In this document: piece after piece, positions 97-22,274 of the stretch
How positions within the stretch are numbered: position 1 is the first letter of the stretch
How the letters are laid out: every line of letters begins with the position of its first letter
NCBI GenBank assembly: GCA_947306745.1
Contig: CAMZHH010000007.1
Span: 1-39,576, forward strand
DNA from: an uncultured Candidatus Saccharibacteria bacterium
Lineage (GTDB): Bacteria > Patescibacteriota > Saccharimonadia > Saccharimonadales > Saccharimonadaceae
Direction of reading: 5' to 3'
Length of the DNA stretch: 39,576 nt
Position numbers and translations under genes: made by a program
The notes under the pieces: model-generated
Database searches by the model: none
The model's input: the letters and a program-made list of their open reading frames with translations, nothing else
What the model was told of the DNA's origin: nothing

Positions 97-1038
97 ATGG
101 AGGGCAAGGTGAGGCATAGCAAACAAAAAGGCTTTACGATCATTGAAGTGATGCTTGTTTTAGCATTAACTGGCTTGTTGTTCGTCGGTCTTGTTGCAGG
201 CTTTAGCGGCAACCTTGCACGCCAGCGTTACAAAGACGCTGTCCAGGATGTAGCAGAGCAGCTACGCAGCCTATATTCTCTTGTCTATAATCCCCAAGTC
301 GAGATTCGCGATAAGTCTAACTCTGCTTGCTATGGTTTAGCGAGTGGAAGTAATGAGATTGGCGATAAGGCTAACGTTAACCGTGGCCGCAGTAACTGTA
401 TCGTGCTCGGTGTAGTTGCTAGTATTCATAAAGACACAATTGAGACCACCACTTTGCTCGGGCGCGATGTTAGCCGCGAGGATTTGAGTGGTAAGACTGA
501 GCTGCAAGTTTTGCAATATGCGCAGGCCAACAATCTTGTAGCAATTGGTTCGAATGCGACAAATTGCAAGATTACGACCGGCGGAGAAATGAGTCTTTAT
601 ACGATGAAATGGGGTTCGAAGCTAACGAAGATAGATAACAAAGATAAAAGCGTGCGCGCTACTTTGCTAATATATCGCTCACCACGCAATGGTAGTATAC
701 ATACCTATGTCTGGGATGGCGTTGTCGAAGATCCTACGTCATCACGCGATCCAGAGGGAAACCTTGAGGCAATAAGTTATGAGAAATATGAGAAAAATCC
801 TTTGAATTGTAGTAGTGCGAATAACGTTAAACTCAATAACGAGGGTATTTATAAGTATATTACTGACGCCAATTTTCATTCAGATAGCACCCATGACTTA
901 ATCCTCTGCGTCGAGGCGGGCGACGGTATGACCTATGATGGACATCGTAGACAGATTAGAGTGCATGCAGGCGGTAGTAGCTCGCTTGCAGTTGAATTAA
1001 TAGATACAGAAAGCGATAAGTTTAAACAATGTCAGTAA
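97..1038 (+). CDS. type IV pilus minor pilin / pseudopilin, FimU/GspH-like
   Basis: 313-residue prepilin-like protein. A short basic leader (residues 1-12) ends in a class III prepilin cleavage site, KG|FTIIEV, with the conserved Glu at mature position 5. One hydrophobic helix of about 20 residues follows, then a large hydrophilic domain with several Cys. The family is cleaved and methylated by PilD-type peptidases and inserted in the inner membrane before assembly. It is the first of four prepilin-like genes; its stop overlaps the next start by 10 bases. By position it corresponds to the FimU/GspH minor pilin. The assignment to pilus rather than competence or secretion pseudopilus is inferred. 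The start is fixed by a TATAAT seven bases upstream. Confidence 0.8.
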   Translation: MEGKVRHSKQKGFTIIEVMLVLALTGLLFVGLVAGFSGNLARQRYKDAVQDVAEQLRSLYSLVYNPQVEIRDKSNSACYGLASGSNEIGDKANVNRGRSNCIVLGVVASIHKDTIETTTLLGRDVSREDLSGKTELQVLQYAQANNLVAIGSNATNCKITTGGEMSLYTMKWGSKLTKIDNKDKSVRATLLIYRSPRNGSIHTYVWDGVVEDPTSSRDPEGNLEAISYEKYEKNPLNCSSANNVKLNNEGIYKYITDANFHSDSTHDLILCVEAGDGMTYDGHRRQIRVHAGGSSSLAVELIDTESDKFKQCQ

Positions 1039-1841
1039 AAAAGACTAAGCATGGCGACACAATTGTAGAAGTCTGTATTTGCATTACTATTTTTGCACTC
1101 GTCGCAATCGTTAATATCGGCCTCATGAACAATGGCCTCAATACGGCGCAACGTACACTCGAGGTTACAATGGCGCGCACGGCGATGGATTCTCAGGCTG
1201 AAGCTTTACGCTTTATCCATAACAACTATCTTTCTGAGCGCAACTTTACTTCAGGTAATATGCAGTTTAAGAAAATATGGGACACCATCAAAAGCCTCTC
1301 TCGTAATACTACGAATAGCGGTACCGATGCACAATTATTTGACATCAACAATGCAAAAACTTGTGCAGATGCATACAAGAACCAAGTCGATCACTATAGT
1401 GCATTTGTTGTGAATCCGCGCTTAGTCGTGCCAGACATTGCACCAAAATATCGTGGTTATCAGTATGCGGGTAGCGTATCTGCTACTACGGCTTCGATTA
1501 TGGATAATATGTTAGTTAGTGGTAAAGATGGCGCTAATCGTCTCAAGACCGCATCGCTATATCCGCGCATTATTTATAGTACAACCCCTTCTTCGGCGAG
1601 TGGCTTGATCGCTGCTGACGATGATTCCACTCTAAAGAACGATAACGAAAAACTCTATCAGTTCATTAACCGCGCTGAGGGTATCTGGGTAATCGCTGTA
1701 TTTAGTAATCAAAACGATAAAAACCGCTCCGAGTATTTCGATTTCTATATCCGTACGTGCTGGCAAGCTGCTGGTACTACGGCCCCATCAACGATTACGA
1801 CGATTATGCGTCTTTATAATCCGGAGGTTATTCAGGAATGA
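1029..1841 (+). CDS. type IV pilus minor pilin / pseudopilin, PilV/GspI-like
   Basis: 270 residues. The N-terminus MSVKKTKHGDTIVEVCICIT has a short basic leader, the cleavage Gly and the Glu five residues after it, but the usual Phe after the cleavage site is Asp. A hydrophobic helix follows. The soluble domain is rich in Asn, Thr and Ala with few recognisable motifs. It overlaps the previous gene by 10 bases and the next by four (ATGA), so translation is probably coupled. By order in the operon it matches PilV/GspI. Confidence is high for prepilin-like and moderate for the subtype. Confidence 0.75.
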   Translation: MSVKKTKHGDTIVEVCICITIFALVAIVNIGLMNNGLNTAQRTLEVTMARTAMDSQAEALRFIHNNYLSERNFTSGNMQFKKIWDTIKSLSRNTTNSGTDAQLFDINNAKTCADAYKNQVDHYSAFVVNPRLVVPDIAPKYRGYQYAGSVSATTASIMDNMLVSGKDGANRLKTASLYPRIIYSTTPSSASGLIAADDDSTLKNDNEKLYQFINRAEGIWVIAVFSNQNDKNRSEYFDFYIRTCWQAAGTTAPSTITTIMRLYNPEVIQE

Positions 1842-2671
1842 TCAAGAAGAATCTTCAACAGAATAAAAAAGGCTTCACGATTATCGAATTTAGCATTAGC
1901 CTTATCTTTATTAGTATTATTCTTGTTGCGGTCTGTATGCTAACCATTCAGATTTCGCAAATCTATCAGAAGGGTTTGGTTATTCGCGCTATTAACTCGA
2001 CTGGTCGTGAGATTATGGACGAAATGACGCAAACCGTTAGTGCATCGCAAATCGTCGCAAACATCAATCCGACTTTAGCCACTGGTACTGATAACATTAC
2101 GAATGAGCAGATTTTCAATGCTAGAAAGAAGTATTTCCTTTACAACCAGAAAGGTGGTGATAAAAGCCAACAAACCTCTGGTATCTTCTGTACCGGTAGC
2201 TATGATTACATATGGAATACTGCTGATACGGTTAAAAACAAAGATAAGAATAATGCCGTATTGGTAAATAATCAGATTTATAAGTTTATCCGCATTCCGG
2301 ATACTTCAAGACAATTCTGCGCCACAGATGCATCTACGAATAAGATTAAGAGTATTTCTATTCCTGCCGGCAATATCATTAACCTCATTAATAGCGACGA
2401 AAACGATCTTGCTCTCTATGACTTAACGGTCTATCCAGCCATGCAGAGTGAATCTACACTACATACCTTATATTCTATCAGTTTCATTATCGCAACTACG
2501 CGTGGCGGTATTAACATTAACGCAAATGGCGATTATTGTAGGAGCGTGGACAACCCGAAATCCGGCGAGTATTCCAACCAAGACTTTAATTACTGCGCAG
2601 TGAACCGTTTCGATTTCGTAATTCGTCAGACCGGCGAGTCAACCACTCAGGGTGGTTATGGTACAAAGTAA
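1838..2671 (+). CDS. type IV pilus minor pilin / pseudopilin, PilW/GspJ-like
   Basis: 277 residues. The leader MIKKNLQQNKKG is followed by the cleavage site and FTIIEFSISLIFISIILVAV, a typical prepilin N-terminal helix with Glu5. The soluble domain holds four or more Cys, which may form disulfides in the extracellular fold. Its ATG overlaps the upstream stop (ATGA). By position it corresponds to PilW/GspJ. No separate promoter is seen. Confidence 0.78.
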   Translation: MIKKNLQQNKKGFTIIEFSISLIFISIILVAVCMLTIQISQIYQKGLVIRAINSTGREIMDEMTQTVSASQIVANINPTLATGTDNITNEQIFNARKKYFLYNQKGGDKSQQTSGIFCTGSYDYIWNTADTVKNKDKNNAVLVNNQIYKFIRIPDTSRQFCATDASTNKIKSISIPAGNIINLINSDENDLALYDLTVYPAMQSESTLHTLYSISFIIATTRGGININANGDYCRSVDNPKSGEYSNQDFNYCAVNRFDFVIRQTGESTTQGGYGTK

Positions 2672-2682
2672 AAGGGAGAAAT

Positions 2683-4173
2683 ATGGAAAAATCACAAAAT
2701 ACTAGAGAAGGTGCGGCGTCGATTTATATCGTCATCTTCACCACAATGCTTCTGAGTATCATTGCGCTTAGCTTCGTGCGCATTATGGTTTCTGAAGCCA
2801 ATCAAACTACCAACTATAGCTTGTCTCAATCGGCTTATAACTCTGCTATGGCTGGCGTAGAGGATGCTAAAATTGCTCTCTTGAAGTATCAGAACTGTAT
2901 CAGCACTAACAACAAGATCGATCAGATTTATGGCAGAGGCGAATGCGAACATCTCCGTAGTACCTTCCAGGCCACTGATGCAAATGACGACTGCGATATC
3001 GTCAAAACCGCTCTGCGCCGTCCACTTGGCGATCAAGAAACCCTCATTTCTTCCTCTCAAACAAATAACCGCTTCGTCGAGCAAACGAGTAAGGCTATTG
3101 ATCAGGCTTATACTTGCGTGAAGGTGGCCGTCGATACGGATGATTATATCTCGAAGCTTAATAACAACAACATGTCGAAGTATGTTCCGTTGCGCGCCCT
3201 CAATAACGAGAAAGGTTTGAACCAAAATAGCATTGACCGTATGGTTATCAGCTGGTTTAGCGATGATGATGCCAGCAACGCTACGAATGGTAGTATTACT
3301 AACTACGCAAGCTTCGTTGGTAGTGGCAAGGAATATAGCAACATTCGCGGTTCATCAGTGACGGCGAACTATACAAAAACACGCGACAACACCTTCAGCC
3401 TAGCCGAAAACACCATCAAGGGCTTCGGGGCTACCGGCACTTTGCCACCAGCTCTCAAGATTGAGCTATTCCAGACCTCTACGACCTTTGCGCTCGCGCA
3501 GTTCTACGAGGCTGGTAACAATGGTCAAACTAACCGCGGCTCTATTATCCTGCGCCCTTATGAAGCATCTGGCGATATTTCGATTATCGGTTCAGACTAC
3601 AACACTTCTGGCTTTGTCGCTTCAGCGATGAAAGGTAACAACGTCCCAACAGACGTGAAGTGTCAGGCTCTCAGGGGAACTTCGTTCACTAGTGGCTATG
3701 CTTGTACCGCCGAAATCGTAATCCCATCAGTAATTTCCGGTAGATACAATGTTGAAGGCGCTAGCGTAAATAGCGCGAACGAACGCAATATGGCAACCAG
3801 TCTACTTCGTATTAGTAACCCTTATGGCGCTCCAGAGACCACCTTCGAGGTTAAACTCTATAGCTGTGGTGACAGAACTAGATATGCCTCAAAAGGTCAA
3901 TGTACACCAATGAAATTCTCTGGCGTTCAGTCTCTTGTGGACTCTACTGGTCGTGCAAATGATCTTCTTCGCCGCGTCGAGACTCGCATGGAGATGATCG
4001 ATACTTATTTCCCACAGCCAGATGCTGAGTTGACCGTCATGGGCAGCGGCGATAGCAAGATTGAAAAGAACTATTACGTTACGAATAACTGTATATCTCA
4101 AACTTCCACAATGGGTGCCACGTCTGTCTCGACCTCACGTTCATCCTGCGACAACTTCGGTACGCCGGATTAA
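2683..4173 (+). CDS. PilX/GspK-like minor pilin
   Basis: 496 residues, last gene of the pilin unit, with a good Shine-Dalgarno (AGGGAGAA) before the ATG. The N-terminus has no GFTxxE motif. It reads EGAASIYIVIFTTMLLSIIA, then a helix ending in a region rich in Ala, Ser and Asn. This is typical of PilX/GspK-type N-termini, which start with a short leader, Gly and small residues. The rest is a long Asn/Thr/Ser-rich extracellular domain with several Cys. In pseudopilin complexes GspK is the largest member and caps the tip; the size fits. A terminator follows at 4204. Confidence 0.7.
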   Translation: MEKSQNTREGAASIYIVIFTTMLLSIIALSFVRIMVSEANQTTNYSLSQSAYNSAMAGVEDAKIALLKYQNCISTNNKIDQIYGRGECEHLRSTFQATDANDDCDIVKTALRRPLGDQETLISSSQTNNRFVEQTSKAIDQAYTCVKVAVDTDDYISKLNNNNMSKYVPLRALNNEKGLNQNSIDRMVISWFSDDDASNATNGSITNYASFVGSGKEYSNIRGSSVTANYTKTRDNTFSLAENTIKGFGATGTLPPALKIELFQTSTTFALAQFYEAGNNGQTNRGSIILRPYEASGDISIIGSDYNTSGFVASAMKGNNVPTDVKCQALRGTSFTSGYACTAEIVIPSVISGRYNVEGASVNSANERNMATSLLRISNPYGAPETTFEVKLYSCGDRTRYASKGQCTPMKFSGVQSLVDSTGRANDLLRRVETRMEMIDTYFPQPDAELTVMGSGDSKIEKNYYVTNNCISQTSTMGATSVSTSRSSCDNFGTPD

Positions 4174-6542: not shown

Positions 6543-8813
6543 ATGGCAGATAAGAAAGCCGCTCCACAGGCTGCGCCAACTCCGGCACCAGCTCCTGCAC
6601 CGGTCAAAACAAGCGTAATCGATCAAGTCGCTGAGAAGATTCGTACTAGCGATAATGTTCTTGTTGCGCTCTCGAAAGACCCGTCCGTTGATGAACTGTC
6701 GGCCGCTATTGGTTTAACCTTCATCTTAGATAAGATGGGGAAGCATGCTACTGCTATTTTCTCCGGCGCCGTTCCGAATGCTATTGAATTCCTTGAGCCT
6801 GAAAAGACCTTTGAAGTAAACACGAATAGCTTACAAGACTTCATTATCGCACTCGACAAAGAGAAGGCTGACCATCTTCGCTACAAGATTGAAGGTGATT
6901 TCGTCAAAGTTTTCATCACGCCTTATCGCACCAACATCGAAGAGAGCGATCTTGAGTTTAGTCATGGTGATTACAACGTCGATTTAATCATTTCGTTGAA
7001 CGTTAAAGGCGAAGGCGAGCTCGATGCGGCTTTGAGTGAATATGGGCGCATCAAGCACGACGCTAGCTCGATTAATATTTCCGCACATGAGCCAGGCAAA
7101 TTCGGCGATATTGAATGGGGTGACCCGAAGGCCTCGTCCGTATCTGAAATGATTGCCTTATTGACCGACAAATTCGACAACACTGAAGAAAACATTGTTG
7201 ATAAAACTGTCGCCACTGCCTTAATGGCCGGTATCGTTGCTGCAACGAATCGCTTCTCGAATGAGCACACTTCCGCGAATACGATGAGCGTCGCTAGTAT
7301 GTTGATGACCGCTGGCGCCGATCAGCAGTTGATTTCGTCGAGCATTCCTGTCGATATCGTGGCGGGCGCCACTACTGACGTGTCTGGCGAAGTTGATATG
7401 GAGGCAAAAGAGAAGTCTGAACCAGCTCCAGAAACTCCGGCCGAACCAGCACCAGAAGCTCCAGCTGAACCAGTATCTGAACCAGCCCCAGAACCTGCCA
7501 ATGATGCTCCAGAAGAAAATATGTCTGGCGCAGTAGACATGGAAGAATTAGAAGCCAAAGAAAAAGAGCTAGAACCAGCTCCAGAAACTCCGGCCGAACC
7601 AGCTCCAGCCCCAGCTCCAGAAACGCCAGCCCCAGCCCCGGCACCAATCCCAGAGCCAATTCCGGCTCCTGTACCAGAAACTCCAGTCCCAGCTCCAGCG
7701 AATGACGAGTCGGTTATTGATTTGCGTCATGGTGCCGTCGATTTTAATCCGGACGAAGATGATAAACCAGCCGCATCTAGCGTAGTAGTTGCACCAGATG
7801 CTGTTCCGGACGCTAATAAGCCAGCCCATGAAGGTCCAGTTGTTCCTGGCGCCGCTATGGACGAAGTTGAAGAACCTGTTAATGAAGCTGAAGACGCAAT
7901 CGACGCTGCTTTACAAAAAGCCGCCGCTGCCGCCGCCGCGCAACAAGCCGCTAATAGTGCAAATAACGTCCAAAGTGAACTTGAGCGCATTGTAAATCAA
8001 TCGACCAATCCAAGTGGTGTCGCCACAGAGCAAGTAATGGCTGAATTGCGCCAAGCTTCTGAAGCTCCAGCCCCAGCATCGTCCGTGAGTGGATTGAAGA
8101 ATATACAGCCGATCGGTGATGGCATTCATGCACCAACACCACCTCATGATTATGCTGCGATGATGTCAGCTGAACTTGCCGCTGCAAATAATGCTCCGCA
8201 AGCACCTCAGATGCCAGCAATGGCTCCACAGGTTCCTCAGATGCCAGCAATGGCACCGCAAATGCCACAAACCGCACCGGCTATGGCGCCTCAGATGGCT
8301 CAGGTTCCTCAGATGCCAGCAATGGCTCCGCAGATGCCACAGGCAGCTCCAGCAATGGCTCCGCAAATGCCACAAGCCCCAGTTATGCAAGCACCTCAGA
8401 TGCCAGCTCCAGAAGCTGCCGCAGAGTATATCGCCCCATTGCCAATGCCAGATGCTAGCACAATTCTGCCACCACCGCCAGCTCCATTTGATCCAGCCGC
8501 TGCTCCGGCCACAGTTGCTGCTGCGCCAGCCGAGGCCCCAACCGCACAGGCTTTCGCGCAACAGATTCAGGCCACTAATCCAGTCATGCAAACTCCGCAG
8601 ATGCCACAGGCAGCTCCAGCAATGGCTCCGCAAATGCCACAAGCCCCAGTTATGCAAGCGCCTCAGATGCCAGCTCCGCAAGTTGAAGCTGTACCTGCGC
8701 CAATTATATCCGAACCAGTTCCGGCCGGCTCTGGATACATTCAGCAGAATCCGGTCATGCAAGATCAAGTATATCCAGACGACCCAAGCGCCTTCAAGAT
8801 TCCTGGCATGTAA
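6543..8813 (+). CDS. degenerate DHH-type phosphoesterase domain with long Pro/Ala/Met/Gln tail
   Basis: 756 residues. After a Pro/Ala leader (1-20), residues 22-280 follow the DHH phosphoesterase (RecJ / NrnA) fold. LSKDPSVDELSAAIGL stands at the DxDaiGS motif, VDLIISLN at the second Asp strand, INISAHEPGKFGDIEWGD at the DHH strand, and ASSVSEMIALL and AGIVAATNRF at the later motifs. The metal ligands are mostly replaced: the DHH triplet reads SAH and the DTg motif reads ATN, so hydrolysis is unlikely. Residues 283-756 are disordered-looking: acidic EPAPETPAEP units, an Ala-rich helix around 455-475, then MAPQMPQ repeats. No signal peptide is visible, so it is probably cytoplasmic. A scaffold or ligand-sensing role is conceivable but unproven. 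Confidence 0.7.
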   Translation: MADKKAAPQAAPTPAPAPAPVKTSVIDQVAEKIRTSDNVLVALSKDPSVDELSAAIGLTFILDKMGKHATAIFSGAVPNAIEFLEPEKTFEVNTNSLQDFIIALDKEKADHLRYKIEGDFVKVFITPYRTNIEESDLEFSHGDYNVDLIISLNVKGEGELDAALSEYGRIKHDASSINISAHEPGKFGDIEWGDPKASSVSEMIALLTDKFDNTEENIVDKTVATALMAGIVAATNRFSNEHTSANTMSVASMLMTAGADQQLISSSIPVDIVAGATTDVSGEVDMEAKEKSEPAPETPAEPAPEAPAEPVSEPAPEPANDAPEENMSGAVDMEELEAKEKELEPAPETPAEPAPAPAPETPAPAPAPIPEPIPAPVPETPVPAPANDESVIDLRHGAVDFNPDEDDKPAASSVVVAPDAVPDANKPAHEGPVVPGAAMDEVEEPVNEAEDAIDAALQKAAAAAAAQQAANSANNVQSELERIVNQSTNPSGVATEQVMAELRQASEAPAPASSVSGLKNIQPIGDGIHAPTPPHDYAAMMSAELAAANNAPQAPQMPAMAPQVPQMPAMAPQMPQTAPAMAPQMAQVPQMPAMAPQMPQAAPAMAPQMPQAPVMQAPQMPAPEAAAEYIAPLPMPDASTILPPPPAPFDPAAAPATVAAAPAEAPTAQAFAQQIQATNPVMQTPQMPQAAPAMAPQMPQAPVMQAPQMPAPQVEAVPAPIISEPVPAGSGYIQQNPVMQDQVYPDDPSAFKIPGM
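7419..7603 (+). repeat. 32-bp direct repeat inside the tail-coding region
   Basis: Identical 32-base copies at 7419-7450 and 7572-7603 encode EPAPETPAEP. Each sits in a larger duplicated block that begins SGxVDMEE/A, so a segment of about 50 codons was probably duplicated. Confidence 0.75.
8326..8677 (+). repeat. 85-bp near-perfect direct repeat in the tail-coding region
   Basis: Copies at 8326-8410 and 8593-8677 differ at one base (A/G in GCACCTCAG versus GCGCCTCAG). They are 267 bases apart, a multiple of three, so recombination between them would keep the frame and shorten the tail by 89 residues. Smaller MAPQMPQ units surround them. Confidence 0.85.
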
Positions 8814-8848: not shown

Positions 8849-10039
8849 ATGCGCAAAATAATCTGCTTTTTGACTGCATTGCTAGGGATTTGCTGTCTAT
8901 TTTGTCGACCTGCTCAGGCCATCAATCTTGATGCGAGTCTGGTAATCAACGAACTCCAGCTTGGTTCGCAAGAATATCTTTTGATTGATACAACACACCA
9001 GCAAGTCGTGATGTCGAAAGACGCCGATAAAGTCGTAAAAGTGGCCTCCTTGTCGAAAATTATGACCGCAATCGTCGTACTCGAAAATCGTAAACTTGAC
9101 GAAGTAGTCACGATTACGCGACCAATGATTAGCAATCTATACGACTATCTCGTAGTTGGTTTACAAGTAGGGCAGAAGGTTACCGTCGAAGATTTGCTAT
9201 ACGCATTATTGTTGCCGTCGGCTGGCGACGCAGCGCAGGCTTTGGCATATTCAACTAGTGGCTCAATTGCAGATTTTGCTACATTGATGAACCAACGCGC
9301 GGCGAAACTCGGACTCAAAAACACGCACTTCAGTAATCCGACCGGCATGGACTATGACAACTATTCTACGGCTAGCGATATGGCTGTCATTCTTCAAGAA
9401 GCATTAAAGAATCCAACTTTTGTAAAGATTTTTGAAACTGCCGAATGGGATATGAAGTCTATCGACAAGAAAATTGAGAAGTCATACAAGCCACGTGCGC
9501 ATATCAAAGGCGGAAAAACTGGATACACTGGTGAGGCGGGGCGCTGTTTAGCCTCGACATCTACGATTGAAGGTGTAGATTATCTGCTCATTAATCTTGG
9601 AGCTAACCCGAAAACTAGCGACCATATCAATGATGCTGAAAAACTCTATGCATATATTGAAGATCACTTCGAAAAACAGACTGTTATAAATAAAGGCGTT
9701 TTAGCGCAAACATTGCAAGTTAAAGATAGTTTTCAAGAAACTACGGACCTTTATACGGAAACTGAATTTAGCGATTTATTACCAGCCGACCTCGATCATG
9801 GCAAAATCGAATATGTTTATGAAGGCATGACAATCATCACGCGCGATGTTGCGACTGGTACGAAAGTTGGACAGTATATTGCCAAATATGACGGAAAAGA
9901 AATCGGTCGTGTTGACTTATATCTACGCGATGAAATCTTCTTTCTAGACTATCCAGTTATAGCTGGCTTCGTTGCGGGCGGGGCAGTAGTCGCTTTATTG
10001 ATTGCGCTTGCTATTCGCGCTATTATTCGCCGCCACTAA
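8849..10039 (+). CDS. dacA: D-alanyl-D-alanine carboxypeptidase (penicillin-binding protein 5 family)
   Basis: 396 residues. A signal peptide (MRKIICFLTALLGICCLF to about residue 24) leads into a class A low-molecular-weight PBP domain. The catalytic tetrad SxxK is in VASLSKIMTA, and the KTG box is in IKGGKTGYTGEAGR. The SxN motif reads SAG in LLPSAGDAAQALA, where most relatives have SGN or SAN. A PBP5-like C-terminal domain follows, and the protein ends with a transmembrane helix and basic RAIIRRH tail, a membrane anchor. The enzyme trims the terminal D-Ala of peptidoglycan pentapeptides outside the membrane. A TAAAAT hexamer (8837-8842) lies six bases before the ATG. The SAG variant deserves a check. 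Confidence 0.88.
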   Translation: MRKIICFLTALLGICCLFCRPAQAINLDASLVINELQLGSQEYLLIDTTHQQVVMSKDADKVVKVASLSKIMTAIVVLENRKLDEVVTITRPMISNLYDYLVVGLQVGQKVTVEDLLYALLLPSAGDAAQALAYSTSGSIADFATLMNQRAAKLGLKNTHFSNPTGMDYDNYSTASDMAVILQEALKNPTFVKIFETAEWDMKSIDKKIEKSYKPRAHIKGGKTGYTGEAGRCLASTSTIEGVDYLLINLGANPKTSDHINDAEKLYAYIEDHFEKQTVINKGVLAQTLQVKDSFQETTDLYTETEFSDLLPADLDHGKIEYVYEGMTIITRDVATGTKVGQYIAKYDGKEIGRVDLYLRDEIFFLDYPVIAGFVAGGAVVALLIALAIRAIIRRH

Positions 10040-14318: not shown

Positions 14319-14347
14319 AAGACAAGCAACCTTAAAGATGTTATACT
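14319..14347 (+). promoter_or_regulatory. probable promoter of ftsH
   Basis: AAGACA (14319-14324) and TATACT (14342-14347) are spaced by 17 bases. The -35 matches consensus at four of six positions. The leader is about 45 nucleotides and holds the ribosome site TAGGAG at 14388-14393, six bases before the GTG start. Confidence 0.55.
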
Positions 14348-14399: not shown

Positions 14400-16289
14400 G
14401 TGCCAGAATATAAAAATACCGCGGGTCGTAAAAAACCACAGAAAACCAACAAGTTTTTCAGCTTTGTTCGTTTAACGATTTTTTGGTTATTGATTTTGAC
14501 GATGATTGTCGCTATTGCGTCCACTGGTGCCGGTGGTGGCGTCAACTACGAGGAGAAAGATATTACCGAAATCGCCAAGCTTGCGAATGATGAGAAGCTC
14601 GAAAAAATCGTCATCGAGGGATCGACGCTCTATGTCACTCCGCGCGAGGGCACGGATCTAAAGAATATGATCTCCCGCAAGGAGTCTAGTGGTACTTTGC
14701 AGGAGCAGGGTTTTGAGCAAGCCATCAATGATGGAAAAGTCTCCGTTGAAATCCGCGAAGAAGTTGACGTCTTTGGCATCGTATTGAATGTTGCAACGAT
14801 TTTGATTCCGCTCGTCGTTCTTGGCGGCTTCCTAATCTACATGATTCGCCAGGCTCAGAGTATGAATAATCAGTCGATGGGTTTCGGCAAGGCTAAAGCT
14901 CGCTTATACGGCAACGAAAAGAAGAAAGTGACCTTTGATGATGTCGCCGGTAACGAAGCTGCTAAGCAAGATTTGACCGAAATCGTTGACTTCCTAAAGA
15001 ATCCAAAGAAATACGAGAAGCTTGGTGCTAAGATTCCGCGCGGTGTTTTGCTTGCCGGCGATCCTGGTACCGGCAAGACTCTTATGGCGCGCGCCGTGGC
15101 TGGTGAAGCCGGTGTTCCATTCTTCTCAATCTCTGGTTCTGAATTCGCGGAAATGTTCGTCGGTGTCGGCGCATCTCGCGTACGTGACCTCTTTGGTAAA
15201 GCAAAGAAGAATGCTCCAAGTATTATCTTTATTGATGAGATTGATGCCGTCGCTCACAAGCGCGATGCACGTGGTGGTGCTGGACGCGAAGATGAGCAGA
15301 CGCTCAACCAGATTCTCGTCGAAATGGATGGTTTCGATAACGATACCGGCGTTATTGTGATGGCTGCTACGAACCGCGTTGATATGCTCGACAAAGCACT
15401 TCTACGCCCAGGCCGTTTCGACCGCCACGTAAATGTTACTTTGCCAGAGCGCAAAGACCGCGTTGAGATTTTGAAAGTTCACTTCAAGAACAAACCAGTT
15501 GCCGAAGACGTGAAAATTGATGCGCTTGCTGCTAAGACTGCTGGTAGCTCTGGCGCCGACTTGGCAAACATCGCCAACGAAGCCGCCATTGCTGCTGCGC
15601 GTAATAATCGTAAAGAGATTACTAATGCAGATATTACTGAGGCCTTTGAGCGCATTGCGATTGGTCCAGAACGCAAGTCTAAAGTTATGAACGACCAAGA
15701 ACGCAAGATTACCGCCTATCATGAGGCTGGTCATGCTATCGTTGGTCATGTCCTTCCAGATTCTGATCCAGTTCATAAAGTTACAATCATTCCGCGTGGA
15801 CGCACTGGCGGTGTCACTTGGTTCTTACCACCAGAAGATCGCAGCTATAAGAATATTTACGAACTTAAGGATGTTCTCGCGCGCGCTATGGGCGGTCGTG
15901 TTGCAGAGCGTTTAATTTTGGGGCCAGAGGGTATTACAACTGGCGCCAGCTCAGATCTTCAACATGTTGCCGAGCTTGCCCGTGAGATGGTTACCGAAGA
16001 GGGTATGGGTAGCCGCTTACGCGACCAGGTCTTCAATACCGAAGAGGTGAACTTCTTTGGCGATCGTGCAAAGATTTACTCCGAAAAGACCTCCGAGATT
16101 ATTGATGCTGAAATTGAGGCCCTCGGTAAAGAGGCTGGTCAGCGTGCCGAAGCTGTTCTCCGCGCTAACCGCAAATATCTTGATGCGCTGGCGAATGCTC
16201 TACTCGAGAAAGAAACCCTCGAAGAAGACGAGGTTGTAAAAATATTGCACGGCACTACGCTTCCGGAAACCGCAAAACTTCACAAATAA
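14400..16289 (+). CDS. ftsH: ATP-dependent zinc metalloprotease FtsH
   Basis: 629 residues, GTG start fixed by TAGGAG six bases upstream. A basic N-terminus and first membrane helix (23-41) precede an extracytoplasmic domain of about 80 residues and a second helix (126-150). The AAA+ module has Walker A GDPGTGKT (220-227), the FVG pore motif at 253-255, Walker B IIFIDEID (275-282) and a Second Region of Homology ending RPGRFDR. The protease domain has HEAGH (441-445) and a third zinc ligand Asp in ASSDLQHV. FtsH degrades misfolded membrane proteins and regulators as a hexamer. All key residues appear intact. Confidence 0.97.
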
Positions 16290-16321: not shown

Positions 16322-18904
16322 ATGTATAAATTTTTGAAAAAATTCACTCGCACATGCTACCTTGTAGCTTCCGCATTTATAATCTTAAATTCGGCCGTAG
16401 CTACGTATGCTGAACCACGAGAATATCTCGATTTATTCGCTGCTAACGATATCATTTTCTATGATCCAGATGGTTGCGAAAATAATAACAAGTGTGAAGA
16501 AAAAGCTGTTTCTGGTTCTGATTTGACTGTTATCGGCGACTCTATTCTTGCTGATTCTGTCACGAAGCAGAAAATGATGGATAAATTCTCTGGCCTAACC
16601 GACGCCAACTATGATGCCGTCGTTGGTCGCCCATGGGCTACCGGTCTATCAGTCGCTAAATCCATGACTCTGAAAAACACAGTCATCTTTGAGCAGGGCT
16701 CTAACAATACCGGTCCGACTGTTACTGATAACGATATTGATTCGTTAATCGAGATTACTGGTAAAGAACGTACGGTTATTTTGGTTACAAATTACGGTAC
16801 GGCTAGTCAATATATTGATCCATATAATAAGAACAACGAAACATTCAAGCGTGCTGCTGAAAAATATGACAATATCGTAGTTGCTGACTGGTATACAGCG
16901 GCTAAGAACGCGAACGCAAATATGGATTCGATGACCGTCCACCCGAATGATGACGCCGCGCGCGATCTCTATGTTGAAACAATTGCGGGCGTTACGGGCA
17001 GTGGTAGCTGTGGTGGTGGCCGTGCAGTGATTAAAGGCGACAAGGCTGAAGAGAAAATTTGGTCCGGTCTCACCTCGCTCGGTTTTACTGAGGAGCAAAC
17101 CGCTGGCATTATGGGCAACATGATGCATGAAAGTAACAGCTTCAACCCAGCACAACACGAAGGTAGTCAATATAATAAATACTGGCCTGGCATGAGTCTC
17201 GGTACTGATTCGGAGAAGGCTTATGGTCTCGGCCTGATTCAGTGGTCCTTTGGCCGTCGCGTCAATATGTATAACTACGTTAAGGAAAAAGCGCCTGACC
17301 TGATTGACCATTTCGAAAACCCAGATACGTATAGTAAGAAGAACGGTAGTATTTATGGCTGTAATGGCGACTGCTATATCAGTCTCGCTGGCGAATCAGA
17401 TGCGAACCGCATGTATTCATTGCAATTAACGTTCTTATATGACGAGCTCCAGGGCGAGAGCAGCTATTCTGGCATCTTCAACCAGAGTTCCGTTTATGAT
17501 GCTGCTAAATTCTTCCTTGAACACGTAGAAATCCCGCAAAACCCGTATATTTCTAGCCACCCGGAACGCGCAACTGACGCTGAATCATTCTATCAGAAAT
17601 TTAAGGGTAGCGAATTTACGCTCAGTAGCACTTCAACAGGTTCTAGCTCGAGTGGTACCAGTCTTGGTTCTAGTCCAAGTTCCGGCACTAGTTCCGGCAC
17701 TAGCTCTAGTGCAGGTCTTAGCGGTGCAGCCACCTATGAAAACTATGATGGCGAGCGCGTGTTGGACGATGATCAAATCAAGGCTATCGAAGAGAACCAG
17801 CCACTCTATGAAAAAATCGTTGAAGGTACGGATTACCCATGGCAAATCATGGCCACAATCCATTACCTTGAGTACGGCCTAGGGCGCAATATTACGAAAG
17901 GCGACCCACTCTGTAATGGCGGTGGATGTTCGAACGGTCTCTTCCAGACAATTTACAACCAATACCCAATCATGGGCTACGTCGACGATGATAACTTCGT
18001 GAAGATGGGTAAGGACGCCGTAACTGAGCTACAGCAAAGCAATAGCGATCTCGATCTGACTAAGGATGGCGATATCAAGAAGTTATTCTTCCGCTACAAC
18101 GGTACGGCTGGCGTCTACAAACAGCAGGCTCGCGACCTTGGCTTTAGTGAAGAGGAAGCTGAAAACGGCGAAGGTTCACCATACGTAATGAACCGCTATG
18201 ACCGCGAACGTGACCCGAAGTACAACAAGACTACCTGGGGTCAGATTAAGCGTGACTACGGCCCAATCGAATATCCAGCCAACATGCACTTTGGCGCCTA
18301 CGTTATCTACACGGCTATCGGTGGTGGCAGCGGGGGTTCTAGTAAGGGGCGCTGCGGTAAGACCTATGGCGGTGGTAATATGGATGTCAACCAGACCGCT
18401 ATCGACTTGGCGTGGCCAATTGGCGATCCGCATAACTCCGCAAACGGCGGTGCTGTGAACGGCGAAACGATGGCTTTGACTGCATCGGATGAATACGACC
18501 ATGCACTTCAGGAAGTTGGTCTTAAGACTTACGGCGATGCGCAGGTCCAGCGTGGCTCGAGCTGTGATGCCTTCGTGACGACGGTCTATCGCTACTCGGG
18601 TGTCGATAAAGACTTCTACTGTTGCGGCTGTGGCTATCAAATTGATTACCTTACTGGTGCGGGGGCGGCGAAATTCGACGAAATTGAATACACCAAGTCG
18701 GGCTCTACTGGCGATACGTCAGTACTGAAGCCGGGCGATGTGATGATTTGTAGTGGCCACATTCTGCTGTATATCGAGTTGGACGGCAAGGGCATGGAGG
18801 CGCAAGCTTCCTACGGCGACCATAGTGGGCAGATTAGTGAAGGCGTTGGCTTATATTCTAACTATCACAGCGCTTGGTATCGTGTCTTTAGGTTTAAGAG
18901 TTAA
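16322..18904 (+). CDS. secreted multidomain peptidoglycan hydrolase: SGNH esterase, tail lysozyme, second lysozyme-like and CHAP/NlpC-like domains
   Basis: 860 residues with a signal peptide (1-30, ending ATYA). Residues 66-225 look like the OatA-type SGNH domain: IGDSILADS with nucleophile Ser74, the DAVVGRP strand, EQGSNNTG as the GxN block, and DSMTVHP with His207. Residues 245-430 match phage-tail-type lysozyme: GFTEEQTAGIMGNMMHES with Glu270, and YGLGLIQWSFGRR. A Ser/Gly/Thr linker (434-470) follows. Residues 490-660 look like an SLT/lysozyme-type domain (WQIMATIHYLEYGLGRN, then GLFQ). Residues 740-860 are CHAP/NlpC-like, with SSCDAF Cys748 and SGHILLYIE His813. Together it could de-acetylate, cut glycan and cut peptide in one chain. 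It may act on its own wall or a host wall. Confidence 0.8.
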   Translation: MYKFLKKFTRTCYLVASAFIILNSAVATYAEPREYLDLFAANDIIFYDPDGCENNNKCEEKAVSGSDLTVIGDSILADSVTKQKMMDKFSGLTDANYDAVVGRPWATGLSVAKSMTLKNTVIFEQGSNNTGPTVTDNDIDSLIEITGKERTVILVTNYGTASQYIDPYNKNNETFKRAAEKYDNIVVADWYTAAKNANANMDSMTVHPNDDAARDLYVETIAGVTGSGSCGGGRAVIKGDKAEEKIWSGLTSLGFTEEQTAGIMGNMMHESNSFNPAQHEGSQYNKYWPGMSLGTDSEKAYGLGLIQWSFGRRVNMYNYVKEKAPDLIDHFENPDTYSKKNGSIYGCNGDCYISLAGESDANRMYSLQLTFLYDELQGESSYSGIFNQSSVYDAAKFFLEHVEIPQNPYISSHPERATDAESFYQKFKGSEFTLSSTSTGSSSSGTSLGSSPSSGTSSGTSSSAGLSGAATYENYDGERVLDDDQIKAIEENQPLYEKIVEGTDYPWQIMATIHYLEYGLGRNITKGDPLCNGGGCSNGLFQTIYNQYPIMGYVDDDNFVKMGKDAVTELQQSNSDLDLTKDGDIKKLFFRYNGTAGVYKQQARDLGFSEEEAENGEGSPYVMNRYDRERDPKYNKTTWGQIKRDYGPIEYPANMHFGAYVIYTAIGGGSGGSSKGRCGKTYGGGNMDVNQTAIDLAWPIGDPHNSANGGAVNGETMALTASDEYDHALQEVGLKTYGDAQVQRGSSCDAFVTTVYRYSGVDKDFYCCGCGYQIDYLTGAGAAKFDEIEYTKSGSTGDTSVLKPGDVMICSGHILLYIELDGKGMEAQASYGDHSGQISEGVGLYSNYHSAWYRVFRFKS

Positions 18905-18918
18905 CGGAGGAGTAAAAC

Positions 18919-19599
18919 ATGCAGAACGAGAGAACGAAGGCTGATCAATATGCCAATAACCGGCGTACGATATTTATCGCTCTGGCCGTCATCTTTCTTA
19001 TGGCTGTAGTATTTGTAGTTGTATTGTTTATAAGCAATATCCCAAAAACGGCCACTATTAAAGTACTAGTCGCACCATCAACTTCAACTCTCACGATTGG
19101 TGGCAAGAAGTATAGGACTAAGGGCGATATTCGAATTGAGCCAGGCGAATATGAAGTAAAAATTCAGAAGGACGGCTTCATTTCGTATGAGGGCAAAATA
19201 TCCGTCGCAAAAGGTGAGACTGCTAAGCTTTATGAATGTCTGAAAGCTGAAGAAGGGAATGATTTCTATACCAAGAATACGCGCGAATATGAACTTTGCT
19301 ACACGGCACAAGAAACTACCGCCGAAGTAGAGCAACGTAAACTTTATGATTCTGACAAGATTTATACCATTTTGCCATTCCATAGCTACGAAAAAGGCTT
19401 CAATATCGACGCCAACAAGGCTGAAGATGGCGATGAGAAAATTACCATCAAAATCACCTTATTGTCTTGTATCGAAAAGCGCCGCGAAGGTTTGAAGAAG
19501 AATGCGCTTGAATGGCTTCGTGAAAATGGTGTAAACCCAGACGATTATAATATTATTTACGCAGGCGGATGTGACAGCAGTGACCAAAAAGCAGACTAA
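18919..19599 (+). CDS. membrane-anchored PEGA-domain protein
   Basis: 226 residues with a strong ribosome site (GGAGGAG) 14 bases after the hydrolase stop, so they are probably co-transcribed. One membrane helix (about residues 20-43) follows a short cytoplasmic tail. Residues 50-105 are a PEGA domain (IKVLVAPSTSTLTIGGKKY, IEPGEYEVKIQKDGF), a surface-layer-associated beta module. A C-terminal domain of about 100 residues holds several Cys and the IYTILPF segment. The function is unknown; an extracytoplasmic binding or scaffolding role is likely. Confidence 0.75.
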   Translation: MQNERTKADQYANNRRTIFIALAVIFLMAVVFVVVLFISNIPKTATIKVLVAPSTSTLTIGGKKYRTKGDIRIEPGEYEVKIQKDGFISYEGKISVAKGETAKLYECLKAEEGNDFYTKNTREYELCYTAQETTAEVEQRKLYDSDKIYTILPFHSYEKGFNIDANKAEDGDEKITIKITLLSCIEKRREGLKKNALEWLRENGVNPDDYNIIYAGGCDSSDQKAD

Positions 19600-20569
19600 G
19601 ACTCAGAAAAAAGGGAGGGCGAAAAACAGTTTTATTACAGATCAAATCCGACAGATCAAAAAAGACGGTATTTTGACGTATTTCAAAAAGAATAAAACTG
19701 CATCTTATATTTTGGCCTGTGTTGCATTAGTGTTAGCACTCGGCATTTTTATTGCCGTGAATTCGCATCCGGGTAAGGTTGGCGTAGAAATTAAAGTTGC
19801 GCCGTTTTCGGCCAAAGTTTTCATTAATGACAACGAAGTTCGTAATAATCATAAAGAGTACCTTGCGCCTGGTGAATATGATGTTAGAGTTGAACTAGAG
19901 CATTTCGAGACGATGGAACAAAAAGTCACAGTCTCGAATGACTTTAAGGCTATTATGGGCGGCTTGCAGCCAATCGATGCGGCTGGTGATGATATTTACT
20001 ACCAAAAAATCGTCGATTACCGTAAAACCAATACTGCCGATTCGTCGCCAGAACTTACCGGCGCAATCTATAAGAAATTACCGCTCGAGAAATCGATTTA
20101 CCGTGTCGTAACGGCCTACGATGAGGAAGAGAAGAAAGCTATGATTCGCATTTATGCCGGCGAACCATATGTAGAAACTGCAATTTCGGAATTATTCAAG
20201 AACCTCAAATATGATGCGGCAATTTCTGGCTATAAGATCACGCTTAGTAAATATAATGACATCTTTACTGAAGCTGCTGAGAGCAAAGCACATACTGCAA
20301 CGGACGTCGTAAAGGAAGCCTATGCCTCCGTGATTGATGAGAATTTCCAATTTAAGGAAGAATTGCATTCTGGACGCTATGCGGCCGTAGTAATGTGCAC
20401 ACAACAAAATACCGGTGGCGCCTTCTTCCGCGCTTATCGCACAGTGCTCGAGCGTGATGGTAATACTTGGAAGATTTTGCATGCACCGTATCCGGTAGTA
20501 TCAAAAGGCATTCTGCCAGACATCGAAACTACCTTCCTGAATCGTATTAATCTTGTAAAATGCAATTAA
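19571..20569 (+). CDS. second membrane-anchored PEGA-domain protein, paralogue of the previous one
   Basis: 332 residues. The GTG start overlaps the preceding gene by 29 bases; another GTG at 19580 is possible. A Lys-rich cytoplasmic stretch leads to one membrane helix (ASYILACVALVLALGIFIAV), then a PEGA domain (VEIKVAPFSAKVFINDNEV, LAPGEYDVRVELEHFE). The C-terminal part resembles the preceding protein near IYKKLP / IYTILP. It then has an extra domain of about 130 residues (SGRYAAVVMCTQQNTGGAFF, RAYRTVLERDG). Tandem duplication followed by extension of the second copy is the simplest reading. Confidence 0.75.
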   Translation: MTAVTKKQTKTQKKGRAKNSFITDQIRQIKKDGILTYFKKNKTASYILACVALVLALGIFIAVNSHPGKVGVEIKVAPFSAKVFINDNEVRNNHKEYLAPGEYDVRVELEHFETMEQKVTVSNDFKAIMGGLQPIDAAGDDIYYQKIVDYRKTNTADSSPELTGAIYKKLPLEKSIYRVVTAYDEEEKKAMIRIYAGEPYVETAISELFKNLKYDAAISGYKITLSKYNDIFTEAAESKAHTATDVVKEAYASVIDENFQFKEELHSGRYAAVVMCTQQNTGGAFFRAYRTVLERDGNTWKILHAPYPVVSKGILPDIETTFLNRINLVKCN

Positions 20570-20601: not shown

Positions 20602-22233
20602 ATGAAACGCAAGCTACATTTTCGTTCAGTTGTGTCTTTAGCGAACAGCAAACTGTCGATTAAGACGGCTGCCGTAGTGCTTGCGAGCTCAACTTTAATT
20701 TCTGCTTTGCTTGGTATCTTCCGCGACCGCTGGCTAAACTCTTTGTACTACAATACCTATCCGGCCGGCCTGGATGCTTATACGGCTGCTTTTACGGTGC
20801 CAGATTTCTTATACTTCATCATTACTTCCGGCGCCTTAGCCGTAACATTTATTCCAGTCTTCAACCAACGTCTCGTCAATGGCAATAAGAAATCTGCCTG
20901 GGAGCTCAGCTCAAGCTTGCTAAACTTCCTGGCTATCATTTCGCTCGTTGCGTCGATTTTAATTATGATTTTTGCCGATCCGCTTGTGCGTTATGTGGTG
21001 GCGCCAGGCTTGAACGAGTCTGCCATGTCGCTCGCTATTAATATGATGCGCGTAATTGCAATTAACCCATTCTTATTCTCGATTTCGACAGTTATTTCCA
21101 GTATGCAGCAAGCCGTACGCCGTTTCGTCTTCTATGCCATCGCGCCAGCTTTGTATAACATTGGTATTATCGTCGGTATTCTCGTCTTTACGGATGGTAT
21201 TAATATCTTTGGTTTTCAATTATTTGAGGGCGGCATAATGGGCGTCGCAATTGGTGTCGTTTTTGGCGCCTTAATGCAGCTAATTATTAGTATTGTAGGT
21301 CTAGTTGGTTTAGGATTTGACTACGAGTTTAAGATTAATTGGCGCAATCAAGGTTTTCGTCAAGTGCTCAAGATGCTCCCGTCGCGCTCCATCGATCAAG
21401 GCATCGATTATGTCACGAGCATTATGAATACTAACCTCGCTTCTCGCATGGGTGAGCAGAGTATTCGCGCTTTTCAGCAAGCTTCGAGCTTGCGTGGTAT
21501 GCCGGTTAGTTTGATTGGCGTTGCAATCTCGACTGCATTCTTCCCGAAACTTAGCGAAGAAGCAGCAACGAATGACGAAAGCACCTTCATGCAAACTTTG
21601 CGCTCGGCGCTCAGCACGATTGTCTGGATTTCTTTACCAGTCGCGATTGTAGCGTTCTTTATTCGCGGCTATGTCGTAAACTTCATCGTAAATGGTGGTG
21701 ATGCGAAGATTGCTAGCGTGCTCGGCTCGTTTGTGGTCGCAATTTTCTGCCAGTCGCTCTATCATATCGTGGCGCGCGGCTATTATGCTAAGCAAAATAT
21801 TAAAACTCCACTTATTATTTCCATCATCGCTTTTGTAGTTCAGGTGATTTTCGCCATCTTGCTTAGCATGATGAATTTTGGTCCAGAAGGTCTAGCTTAC
21901 GCTGTGAGTATTAGTGCATTCTTTGAAGTATTTGTATTACTCGGCTTCTTACATAAAGATACGGGGAAGAAGCTAATCAATAAAGAGCTGCTCCATGCTA
22001 TGCTTAAAATTTTAATCGCTTCCTTGATTACGGGCGCAGTTTCGTATATTGCTACCAAGTTGTTGCCACTTCGCTCCACGGATAATTCTTTCTTGAGTAC
22101 CTTCCCGAAGTTCGTCGTCATCTGTCTTGTTAGTGGTGTTACTTATATAATCGTGTGTTGGATCATGAAGATTGAAGAAGTAAAACCAGTTGTAGATAAA
22201 ATCACCGGCGTATTGTTTAAGAATATCAAATAG
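20602..22233 (+). CDS. murJ: lipid II flippase MurJ (MviN)
   Basis: 543 residues with about 14 membrane helices. The N-terminal ASSTLISALLGIFRDRWL and DAYTAAFTVPDFLY are the family's conserved first loop and helix, and GALAVTFIPVFNQ follows. The central arginine-rich LKMLPSRSIDQGIDYV and RAFQQASSLRGMPVSLIG match the MurJ cavity and helix 7-8 region. MurJ moves lipid-linked peptidoglycan precursors to the outer face of the membrane. The next gene is convergent, with a terminator between. Confidence 0.93.
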   Translation: MKRKLHFRSVVSLANSKLSIKTAAVVLASSTLISALLGIFRDRWLNSLYYNTYPAGLDAYTAAFTVPDFLYFIITSGALAVTFIPVFNQRLVNGNKKSAWELSSSLLNFLAIISLVASILIMIFADPLVRYVVAPGLNESAMSLAINMMRVIAINPFLFSISTVISSMQQAVRRFVFYAIAPALYNIGIIVGILVFTDGINIFGFQLFEGGIMGVAIGVVFGALMQLIISIVGLVGLGFDYEFKINWRNQGFRQVLKMLPSRSIDQGIDYVTSIMNTNLASRMGEQSIRAFQQASSLRGMPVSLIGVAISTAFFPKLSEEAATNDESTFMQTLRSALSTIVWISLPVAIVAFFIRGYVVNFIVNGGDAKIASVLGSFVVAIFCQSLYHIVARGYYAKQNIKTPLIISIIAFVVQVIFAILLSMMNFGPEGLAYAVSISAFFEVFVLLGFLHKDTGKKLINKELLHAMLKILIASLITGAVSYIATKLLPLRSTDNSFLSTFPKFVVICLVSGVTYIIVCWIMKIEEVKPVVDKITGVLFKNIK

Positions 22234-22256: not shown

Positions 22257-22274
22257 CCACCCGTCTCCGGGTGG
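22257..22274. terminator. bidirectional terminator between murJ and the gatC operon
   Basis: The perfect stem CCACCCG / CGGGTGG with a TCTC loop has A-rich sequence on the left and CTTTTT on the right. It ends both the plus-strand murJ and the minus-strand operon. Confidence 0.85.

What the first reader, a model, noticed from the sequence alone, without database searches (positions are those of the whole stretch)
16322..18904. Four-module wall hydrolase: SGNH esterase, tail lysozyme, second lysozyme-like and CHAP/NlpC-like domains
An N-terminal OatA-like SGNH domain with nucleophile Ser74 and His207 is joined to a phage-tail-type lysozyme (Glu270), an SLT-like domain and a Cys748/His813 amidase or endopeptidase-like domain. 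De-O-acetylation of MurNAc would remove the group that protects many Gram-positive walls from lysozyme. The fusion therefore fits a self-sufficient wall-breaching enzyme of an epibiont or predator of Actinobacteria. It sits in one cluster with two PEGA proteins and MurJ.
Basis: partly seen in the sequence, partly recalled or inferred. Interest (0 to 1): 0.7.

Follow-up and report, generated by a model that had tools for sequence, protein, structure and literature searches.

The report
Four-domain wall hydrolase, type IV secretion-linked
A gene in a tiny epibiont-type bacterium (Saccharibacteria) encodes one exported protein with an OatA-type acetyl-handling domain, two lysozyme-like domains and a cysteine-hydrolase domain; its closest relatives sit in the type IV secretion gene cluster, so it is probably a cell-wall-opening tool of that machinery or a spare copy of it.

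Summary
The protein has a signal peptide, an SGNH domain of the OatA C-terminal type, a phi29 gp13-type tail lysozyme, an SLT/goose-lysozyme-like domain and a CHAP/NlpC-like domain. The genome is Saccharibacteria. Three corrections follow. (1) The SGNH domain is closest to a peptidoglycan O-acetyltransferase, not an esterase. It carries the OatA Block II Val, has Met204 in place of the catalytic Asp, and lacks the AT3 acetyl-supply domain. De-O-acetylation is possible but unproven. (2) The protein belongs to a genus-wide family of shuffled hydrolases. A member sits 3-4 kb behind VirB4 in 33 of 38 VirB4-bearing genomes, and this exact type fills that place in three relatives. It works like PrgK of pCF10 (same phage-lysozyme family plus CHAP, coded beside VirB4). 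(3) PEGA genes are recurrent partners of these hydrolases (55 of 68); FtsH and MurJ are not, since four relatives have the same operon without the hydrolase. Whether the target is the host's or the own wall is undecided; I favour the host interface. New variant of a known kind.

The parts
16322..18904 (+). whole gene, 860 aa exported hydrolase: signal peptide + SGNH + phage-tail lysozyme + SLT-like + CHAP/NlpC-like
16322..16411 (+). signal peptide, residues 1-30, Ala-x-Ala end ..ATYA|EP
   Evidence: read from translation; no signal-peptide program was available
16508..16999 (+). SGNH domain of OatA C-terminal type, residues 63-226: G72-D73-S74, Val101-Gly102-Arg103 (Block II), G126-x-N128, His207; Met204 where OatA has its catalytic Asp
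17036..17611 (+). phage-tail lysozyme (PF18013), residues 239-430, Glu270 aligned with Glu45 of phi29 gp13
17621..17731 (+). Ser/Gly/Thr-rich linker, residues 434-470; much shorter in relatives
17756..18337 (+). SLT / goose-lysozyme-like domain, residues 479-672: H514, E517, Y592-N593-G594 invariant
18374..18901 (+). CHAP/NlpC-P60-like domain, residues 685-860: Cys748, His813 invariant
14400..16289 (+). FtsH (AAA + M41), upstream gene of the operon
18919..19599 (+). PEGA protein 1: N-terminal TM + PEGA; recurrent neighbour of these hydrolases
19571..20569 (+). PEGA protein 2: N-terminal TM + PEGA + C-terminal region of unknown fold; a homologue follows the own genome's T4SS-locus hydrolase
20602..22233 (+). 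MurJ, last gene of the operon
14319..14347 (+). promoter-like site ahead of FtsH (consensus match only, not above the shuffled expectation)
22257..22274 (+). terminator-like hairpin after MurJ

Best explanation
It is an exported, multi-catalytic peptidoglycan hydrolase of a Saccharibacterium, and a paralogue of the hydrolase that sits in the type IV secretion (T4SS) locus across this genus. It works like PrgK of plasmid pCF10. The gp13-type lysozyme (Glu270) and the SLT-like domain (Glu517) would cut glycan strands, and the CHAP/NlpC domain (Cys748/His813) would cut, bind or regulate at the peptides, so that the secretion machinery or the epibiont can pass a wall. The added OatA-type SGNH domain would handle the 6-O-acetyl group of MurNAc, most likely by binding it and slowly removing it so the lysozymes are not blocked. 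Shown: domain identities, conserved catalytic residues, T4SS linkage of the family, and occupation of the T4SS slot by this exact type in three relatives. Inferred: enzyme activity, action on the host wall rather than the own wall, and the role of the SGNH domain.
For: Domain and active-site conservation. T4SS link: in G039 the gene order is PrgI (PF12666) - VirB4 (PF19044, 1.5e-29) - large membrane gene - this hydrolase - RecF; same layout in G041 and G027. A PF18013 hydrolase lies downstream of VirB4 on the same strand in 34 of 38 genomes of the genus, 33 of them within 4.1 kb. In the family, 23 of 27 sampled VirB4 loci from other genera carry a LYS2, SLT or CHAP protein downstream of VirB4 and the large gene, mostly right before RecF/DnaN. 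The own genome fills that slot with a LYS2-SGNH-CHAP paralogue (contig 1). pCF10 PrgK is PF18013 (2.6e-29) + CHAP (6.5e-21), with a sub-threshold M23 match, coded directly after VirB4. PrgK's lysozyme domain is a gp13-like muramidase (PMC11323569). PMC12102498 states that peptidase and lysozyme homologues just downstream of virB4 are essential for epibiotic growth of S. epibionticum. Fast divergence: hydrolase 56% against VirB4 97% and FtsH/MurJ 80% between the same genomes, with many shuffled domain orders, as expected of a host-facing tool.
Against: This copy is not in the T4SS locus (contig 7, the T4SS is on contig 1), so its membership in the machine is by relatives only. VirB1-type enzymes open the cell's OWN wall, so host action is not implied by the linkage. 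In PrgK only the muramidase domain was active in vitro. The SGNH domain lacks the catalytic Asp, and replacing that Asp in OatA by Asn left minimal activity (PMC5697884). The SLT fold was confirmed only indirectly (AF2 pLDDT 51, Z 3.5 to MltE).
Confidence: 0.6

Rival explanations
1. Own-wall autolysin: the protein remodels the Saccharibacterium's own peptidoglycan during growth, division or assembly of envelope machines, with no role in the host wall.
For: Operon with FtsH and MurJ. VirB1/PrgK-type enzymes act on the donor's own wall (PMC11323569). The genome encodes a true OatA (AT3 + SGNH, contig 9), so its own wall may be O-acetylated and would need an SGNH-aided hydrolase.
Against: FtsH-PEGA-(PEGA)-MurJ exists without the hydrolase in four relatives, so it is not part of a fixed growth operon. 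Rapid divergence and shuffling. Phage-tail lysozymes work on a wall from outside.
Confidence: 0.27
2. The SGNH module is a non-catalytic or barely catalytic sugar-binding module that aims the lysozymes at (acetylated) MurNAc.
For: DxxH Asp replaced by Met204 in this protein and its orthologues; in another N-terminal-SGNH relative (L044) Asp73, Asn128 and His207 equivalents are all lost, so decay occurs. No acetyl donor domain.
Against: Ser74 is kept in 25/25, His207 in 22/24 and Asn128 in 23/25 family members.
Confidence: 0.35
3. Prophage or phage-derived endolysin / tail protein caught in the window.
For: PF18013 is a phage-tail family; PHROGs tape-measure hits to the lysozyme part.
Against: No full-length relative in phage, plasmid or viral-contig collections. 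Only two Mammaliicoccus phage tape-measure proteins match, at 27% over the lysozyme part. Signal peptide; chromosomal neighbours; vertical presence throughout the genus.
Confidence: 0.04
4. O-acetyltransferase rather than deacetylase: the SGNH domain moves acetyl groups onto the own wall, for instance to protect it from its own lysozymes.
For: Closest solved relatives are OatA transferases. Val101 matches OatA Val460, which favours transfer over hydrolysis (PMC5697884).
Against: No AT3 or MBOAT partner in the protein; a complete OatA exists elsewhere in the genome.
Confidence: 0.1

Closest known systems
PrgK of conjugative plasmid pCF10 (DELTA family of T4SS peptidoglycan hydrolases)
   Same: PF18013 gp13-type muramidase plus CHAP in one large extracytoplasmic protein; coded beside PrgI and VirB4, as the genus's slot hydrolases are; other genus members also carry M23 (P0002)
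   Different: PrgK has a cytoplasmic part and TM helix and no SGNH or second lysozyme; P0001 has a signal peptide, an OatA-type SGNH and an SLT-like domain, and this copy is away from the T4SS genes
CwlT / TraG-type VirB1-like enzymes (Tn916, pIP501)
   Same: Lysozyme-like plus NlpC/P60 or CHAP tandem serving a monoderm T4SS (CwlT on pCF10/Tn916: Lysozyme_like + NLPC_P60); a distant Patescibacteria relative, L071, has the TM + SLT-like + NLPC_P60 layout
   Different: No SGNH and no phage-tail lysozyme; different lysozyme subfamily (no match to the SLT-like profile)
OatA C-terminal SGNH domain (S. pneumoniae 5UFY/5UG1, S. aureus 6VJP)
   Same: fold (Z 20.6, 20.5), GDS, Block II Val, Block III Asn, His
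   Different: no AT3 domain, DxxH Asp replaced by Met204, fused to lysozymes
phi29 gp13 tail lysozyme
   Same: lysozyme domain, Glu45 = Glu270; gp13 and other genus members pair it with M23
   Different: not in a phage; different partner domains
Bdellovibrio deacetylation plus DslA lysozyme (PMC7511926)
   Same: idea of chemical modification of a prey wall coupled to a matching lysozyme
   Different: N-deacetylation by separate enzymes; unrelated proteins; analogy only

Membership tests
PF18013 phage-tail lysozyme | profile match above curated cut-off | tested here: met
   82.6 bits vs 28.2, residues 242-427
PF18013 phage-tail lysozyme | catalytic Glu (gp13 Glu45) | tested here: met
   aligned with Glu270; kept in nearly all family rows
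OatA-type SGNH | sequence and fold relation to the OatA C-terminal domain | tested here: met
   E 3e-10 to 5ug1; Z 20.6 and 20.5, next family 17.6
OatA-type SGNH | Ser-His of the triad and oxyanion Asn | tested here: met
   Ser74, His207, Asn128
OatA-type SGNH | DxxH Asp (Asp568 in S. pneumoniae) | tested here: not met
   Met204 at that position in P0001 and its orthologues
OatA (full enzyme) | AT3 acetyl-supplying membrane domain | tested here: not met
   absent in P0001; present in the contig-9 protein of the same genome
peptidoglycan O-acetyl esterase | release of acetate from O-acetylated wall | not testable with these tools
   needs assay
SLT / lysozyme-like | homology to SLT families with catalytic Glu | tested here: inconclusive
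   Glu517 invariant; no direct Pfam hit; profile reaches Pfam-SLT proteins; goose lysozyme E 0.03; low-confidence model matches MltE/MltF at Z 3.5
CHAP / NlpC-P60 | Cys-His catalytic pair in a family-matching domain | tested here: met
   Cys748 and His813 in 19/19; relatives match NLPC_P60 and CHAP at 6e-4 and 3e-5; P0001 itself has no direct hit
VirB1/PrgK-type T4SS hydrolase | muramidase plus CHAP/NlpC modules | tested here: met
VirB1/PrgK-type T4SS hydrolase | gene inside the T4SS locus | tested here: not met
   window copy lies between FtsH and PEGA on contig 7, VirB4 on contig 1; met for the same-architecture gene in G027, G039, G041
VirB1/PrgK-type T4SS hydrolase | membrane anchor | tested here: inconclusive
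   one N-terminal hydrophobic segment that reads as a cleavable signal peptide
VirB1/PrgK-type T4SS hydrolase | needed for T4SS function | not testable with these tools
   needs gene removal in a cultured Saccharibacterium

The most novel reading that the evidence does not exclude
Saccharibacteria of this genus have turned the T4SS wall-opening enzyme into a shuffled, fast-evolving toolkit aimed at the host wall. An OatA-derived SGNH domain strips or reads MurNAc O-acetyl groups so that the attached lysozymes can cut resistant host peptidoglycan, and PEGA membrane proteins take the scaffold place that VirB8/PrgL holds in Gram-positive systems.
Probability: 0.22. Interest if true: 0.78.

Novelty: new variant of a known kind. 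Interest (0 to 1): 0.52.

Why it matters
How Patescibacteria breach the wall of the cells they live on is an open question. VirB1 homologues are reported as not highly associated with VirB4 in most classes of Patescibacteria (PMC12102498). This work points to a concrete, widely conserved candidate in the T4SS slot of one Saccharibacteria family, shows that it is a PrgK-like muramidase family, and shows that one genus has bolted on an acetyl-handling domain that could deal with lysozyme-resistant walls. Each step can be tested with purified protein and with gene removal in cultured strains.

Tried and rejected
Phage origin of the whole protein: no full-length relative in phage, plasmid or viral-contig collections. 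Full-length AlphaFold2 with five rows gave a usable model only for SGNH and partly for the lysozyme; the SLT-like domain alone also gave a weak model. The active-site geometry (Ser74-His207-Asp202) could not be measured because model coordinates are not exposed. PEGA proteins as VirB8-like: PDB profile searches found nothing of the kind (only an hdh assembly factor at 0.0027 for PEGA1). IseA inhibitor hit to PEGA1 was below cut-off (0.018). The first-reader idea of a MurJ-linked cluster was tested by synteny and found not to be specific.

Full report
What was checked. The window comes from a Saccharibacteria genome of 935 kb in 36 contigs, 90% complete; the nearest named relatives are Saccharibacteria MAGs UBA3723 and Horse_feces293.

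The modules. Pfam alone recognises only PF18013. I built family profiles for each module from relatives in the same phylum. SGNH (63-226): the profile without the genome's own OatA matches S. pneumoniae OatA at 3e-10 and S. aureus OatA at 1e-7, and the model of this domain (pLDDT about 85) aligns best to the same two enzymes (Z 20.6 and 20.5; next 17.6). Lysozyme (239-430): matches phi29 gp13 at 9e-11, with gp13 Glu45 on Glu270. SLT-like (479-672): no Pfam hit, goose lysozyme at 0.03, but the profile reaches proteins elsewhere in Patescibacteria that are Pfam SLT, and a poor model still aligns to MltE, MltF, MltC and goose lysozyme at Z 3.5 or less. CHAP/NlpC-like (685-860): weak to Spr in the PDB, relatives hit NLPC_P60 and CHAP. 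Catalytic residues are conserved: Ser74 25/25, His207 22/24, Asn128 23/25; Glu270 in nearly all complete domains; His514, Glu517 and the YNG motif 16/16; Cys748 and His813 19/19.

The SGNH domain is not a plain esterase. In P0001 and its orthologues the Asp three residues before the catalytic His is Met204. In S. pneumoniae OatA, replacing that Asp by Asn left minimal activity, and Val460 of Block II favours transfer over hydrolysis (PMC5697884); P0001 has Val101 there. OatA domains alone have only weak esterase activity, 45- to 252-fold below a true O-acetyl esterase (PMC5697884). P0001 lacks the AT3 domain that supplies acetyl groups, while a full OatA is encoded on contig 9 of the same genome. 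I therefore rate slow de-O-acetylation or acetyl-MurNAc binding as likely, and efficient esterase activity as unproven.

A shuffled family. In the same genus and family the four modules recur in other orders: LYS2-SGNH-CHAP (595-745 aa), SGNH-LYS2 with other ends (about 1065-1090 aa), LYS2-SGNH-M23-CHAP (P0002), SGNH-x-LYS2-SLT-CHAP (L047), LYS2-CHAP (L057), SGNH-SLT-CHAP (L050), and a glucosaminidase-CHAP protein (L051). Outside OatA itself, the secreted SGNH domains that I could read in full sit with a lysozyme-type module.

The type IV secretion link. In three relatives (G027, G039, G041) the gene with P0001's architecture lies directly behind VirB4 (PF19044, 1.5e-29) and a large 919-1094 aa gene, with PrgI (PF12666) upstream, and before RecF on the other strand. 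In the genus, 34 of 38 VirB4-bearing genomes have a PF18013 hydrolase downstream on the same strand, 33 of them within 4.1 kb; the usual occupant is the LYS2-SGNH-CHAP type, as in the own genome on contig 1. In 27 further VirB4 loci of the same family from other genera, 23 carry a LYS2, SLT or CHAP protein downstream; an SGNH domain was found in only two of them (L091, L101). Thus the slot enzyme is old and the SGNH addition is mostly a feature of this genus. For comparison, PrgK of pCF10, coded directly after VirB4, is PF18013 at 2.6e-29 plus CHAP at 6.5e-21, with a sub-threshold M23 match; its muramidase domain is gp13-like and it binds PrgL, coded next to it (PMC11323569). PMC12102498 reports that peptidase and lysozyme homologues behind virB4 are essential in S. 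epibionticum.

The window locus. Relatives G009, G027, G039 and G041 have the syntenic run FtsH-PEGA-(PEGA)-MurJ without a hydrolase, about 10 bases separating FtsH and PEGA in G039 and G041. So the window copy is most simply a gain between FtsH and PEGA, or a loss in the others; I did not build a tree to decide. The PEGA gene at 18919 has homologues within 4.5 kb of 55 of 68 large PF18013 hydrolases, but of only 1 of 9 small ones. Where the P0001 type sits in the T4SS slot (G027, G039, G041) no PEGA gene is adjacent, and the PEGA pair stays at the FtsH-MurJ locus. This makes PEGA proteins likely partners (anchor, scaffold or inhibitor); their role is unknown.

Own wall or host wall. Nothing here decides it. 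For the host interface: fast divergence (56% against 97% for VirB4 and 80% for FtsH and MurJ between the same genomes), module shuffling, and the reported essentiality of slot enzymes. For the own wall: this is what VirB1-type enzymes are known to do, and the own wall may be O-acetylated. 'Actinobacteria' as host was not testable.

Verdict.

Noticed in passing
window 19571-20569 and 18919-19599; homologues beside most hydrolases (L041, L042, L044-L050, L052, L053, L057): PEGA-domain membrane proteins travel with the hydrolases. Their place next to the hydrolase resembles that of PrgL (VirB8-like) next to PrgK, and VirB8 is reported as rarely detected in Patescibacteria. The C-terminal part of PEGA protein 2 looks NTF2-like by eye, but a PDB profile search found nothing.
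   Followed up: partly
L042:152-3484 (own contig 1): The 1111 aa gene between VirB4 and the slot hydrolase carries a CHAP-like stretch (863-957, E 1.5e-4) at its C-terminal part, so the large membrane gene of the T4SS may itself hold a wall hydrolase.
   Followed up: no
L008:7995-11183 (P0002): 1062 aa relative with five recognisable parts: LYS2, SGNH, a half lysozyme-like repeat, M23 peptidase and CHAP.
   Followed up: partly
L044:1521-4709: Relative whose SGNH domain has lost Asp73, Asn128 and His207 equivalents: a dead SGNH in the same family.
   Followed up: no
L093 (own contig 29, start of contig): A third CHAP-bearing gene next to a PEGA gene; appears without lysozyme or SGNH parts.
   Followed up: no
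L043:4013-5848 (own contig 9): Complete OatA (AT3 + SGNH): the epibiont can probably O-acetylate its own wall; ORFs of the same size with this SGNH recur in many genomes of the genus.
   Followed up: partly
window 97-4173: Run of four genes, the first with a type IV pilin methylation motif (PF07963), the others without Pfam match: likely a minor-pilin cluster.
   Followed up: no
window 6543-8813: 756 aa ORF without any Pfam match just before a D-alanyl-D-alanine carboxypeptidase (8849-10039).
   Followed up: no
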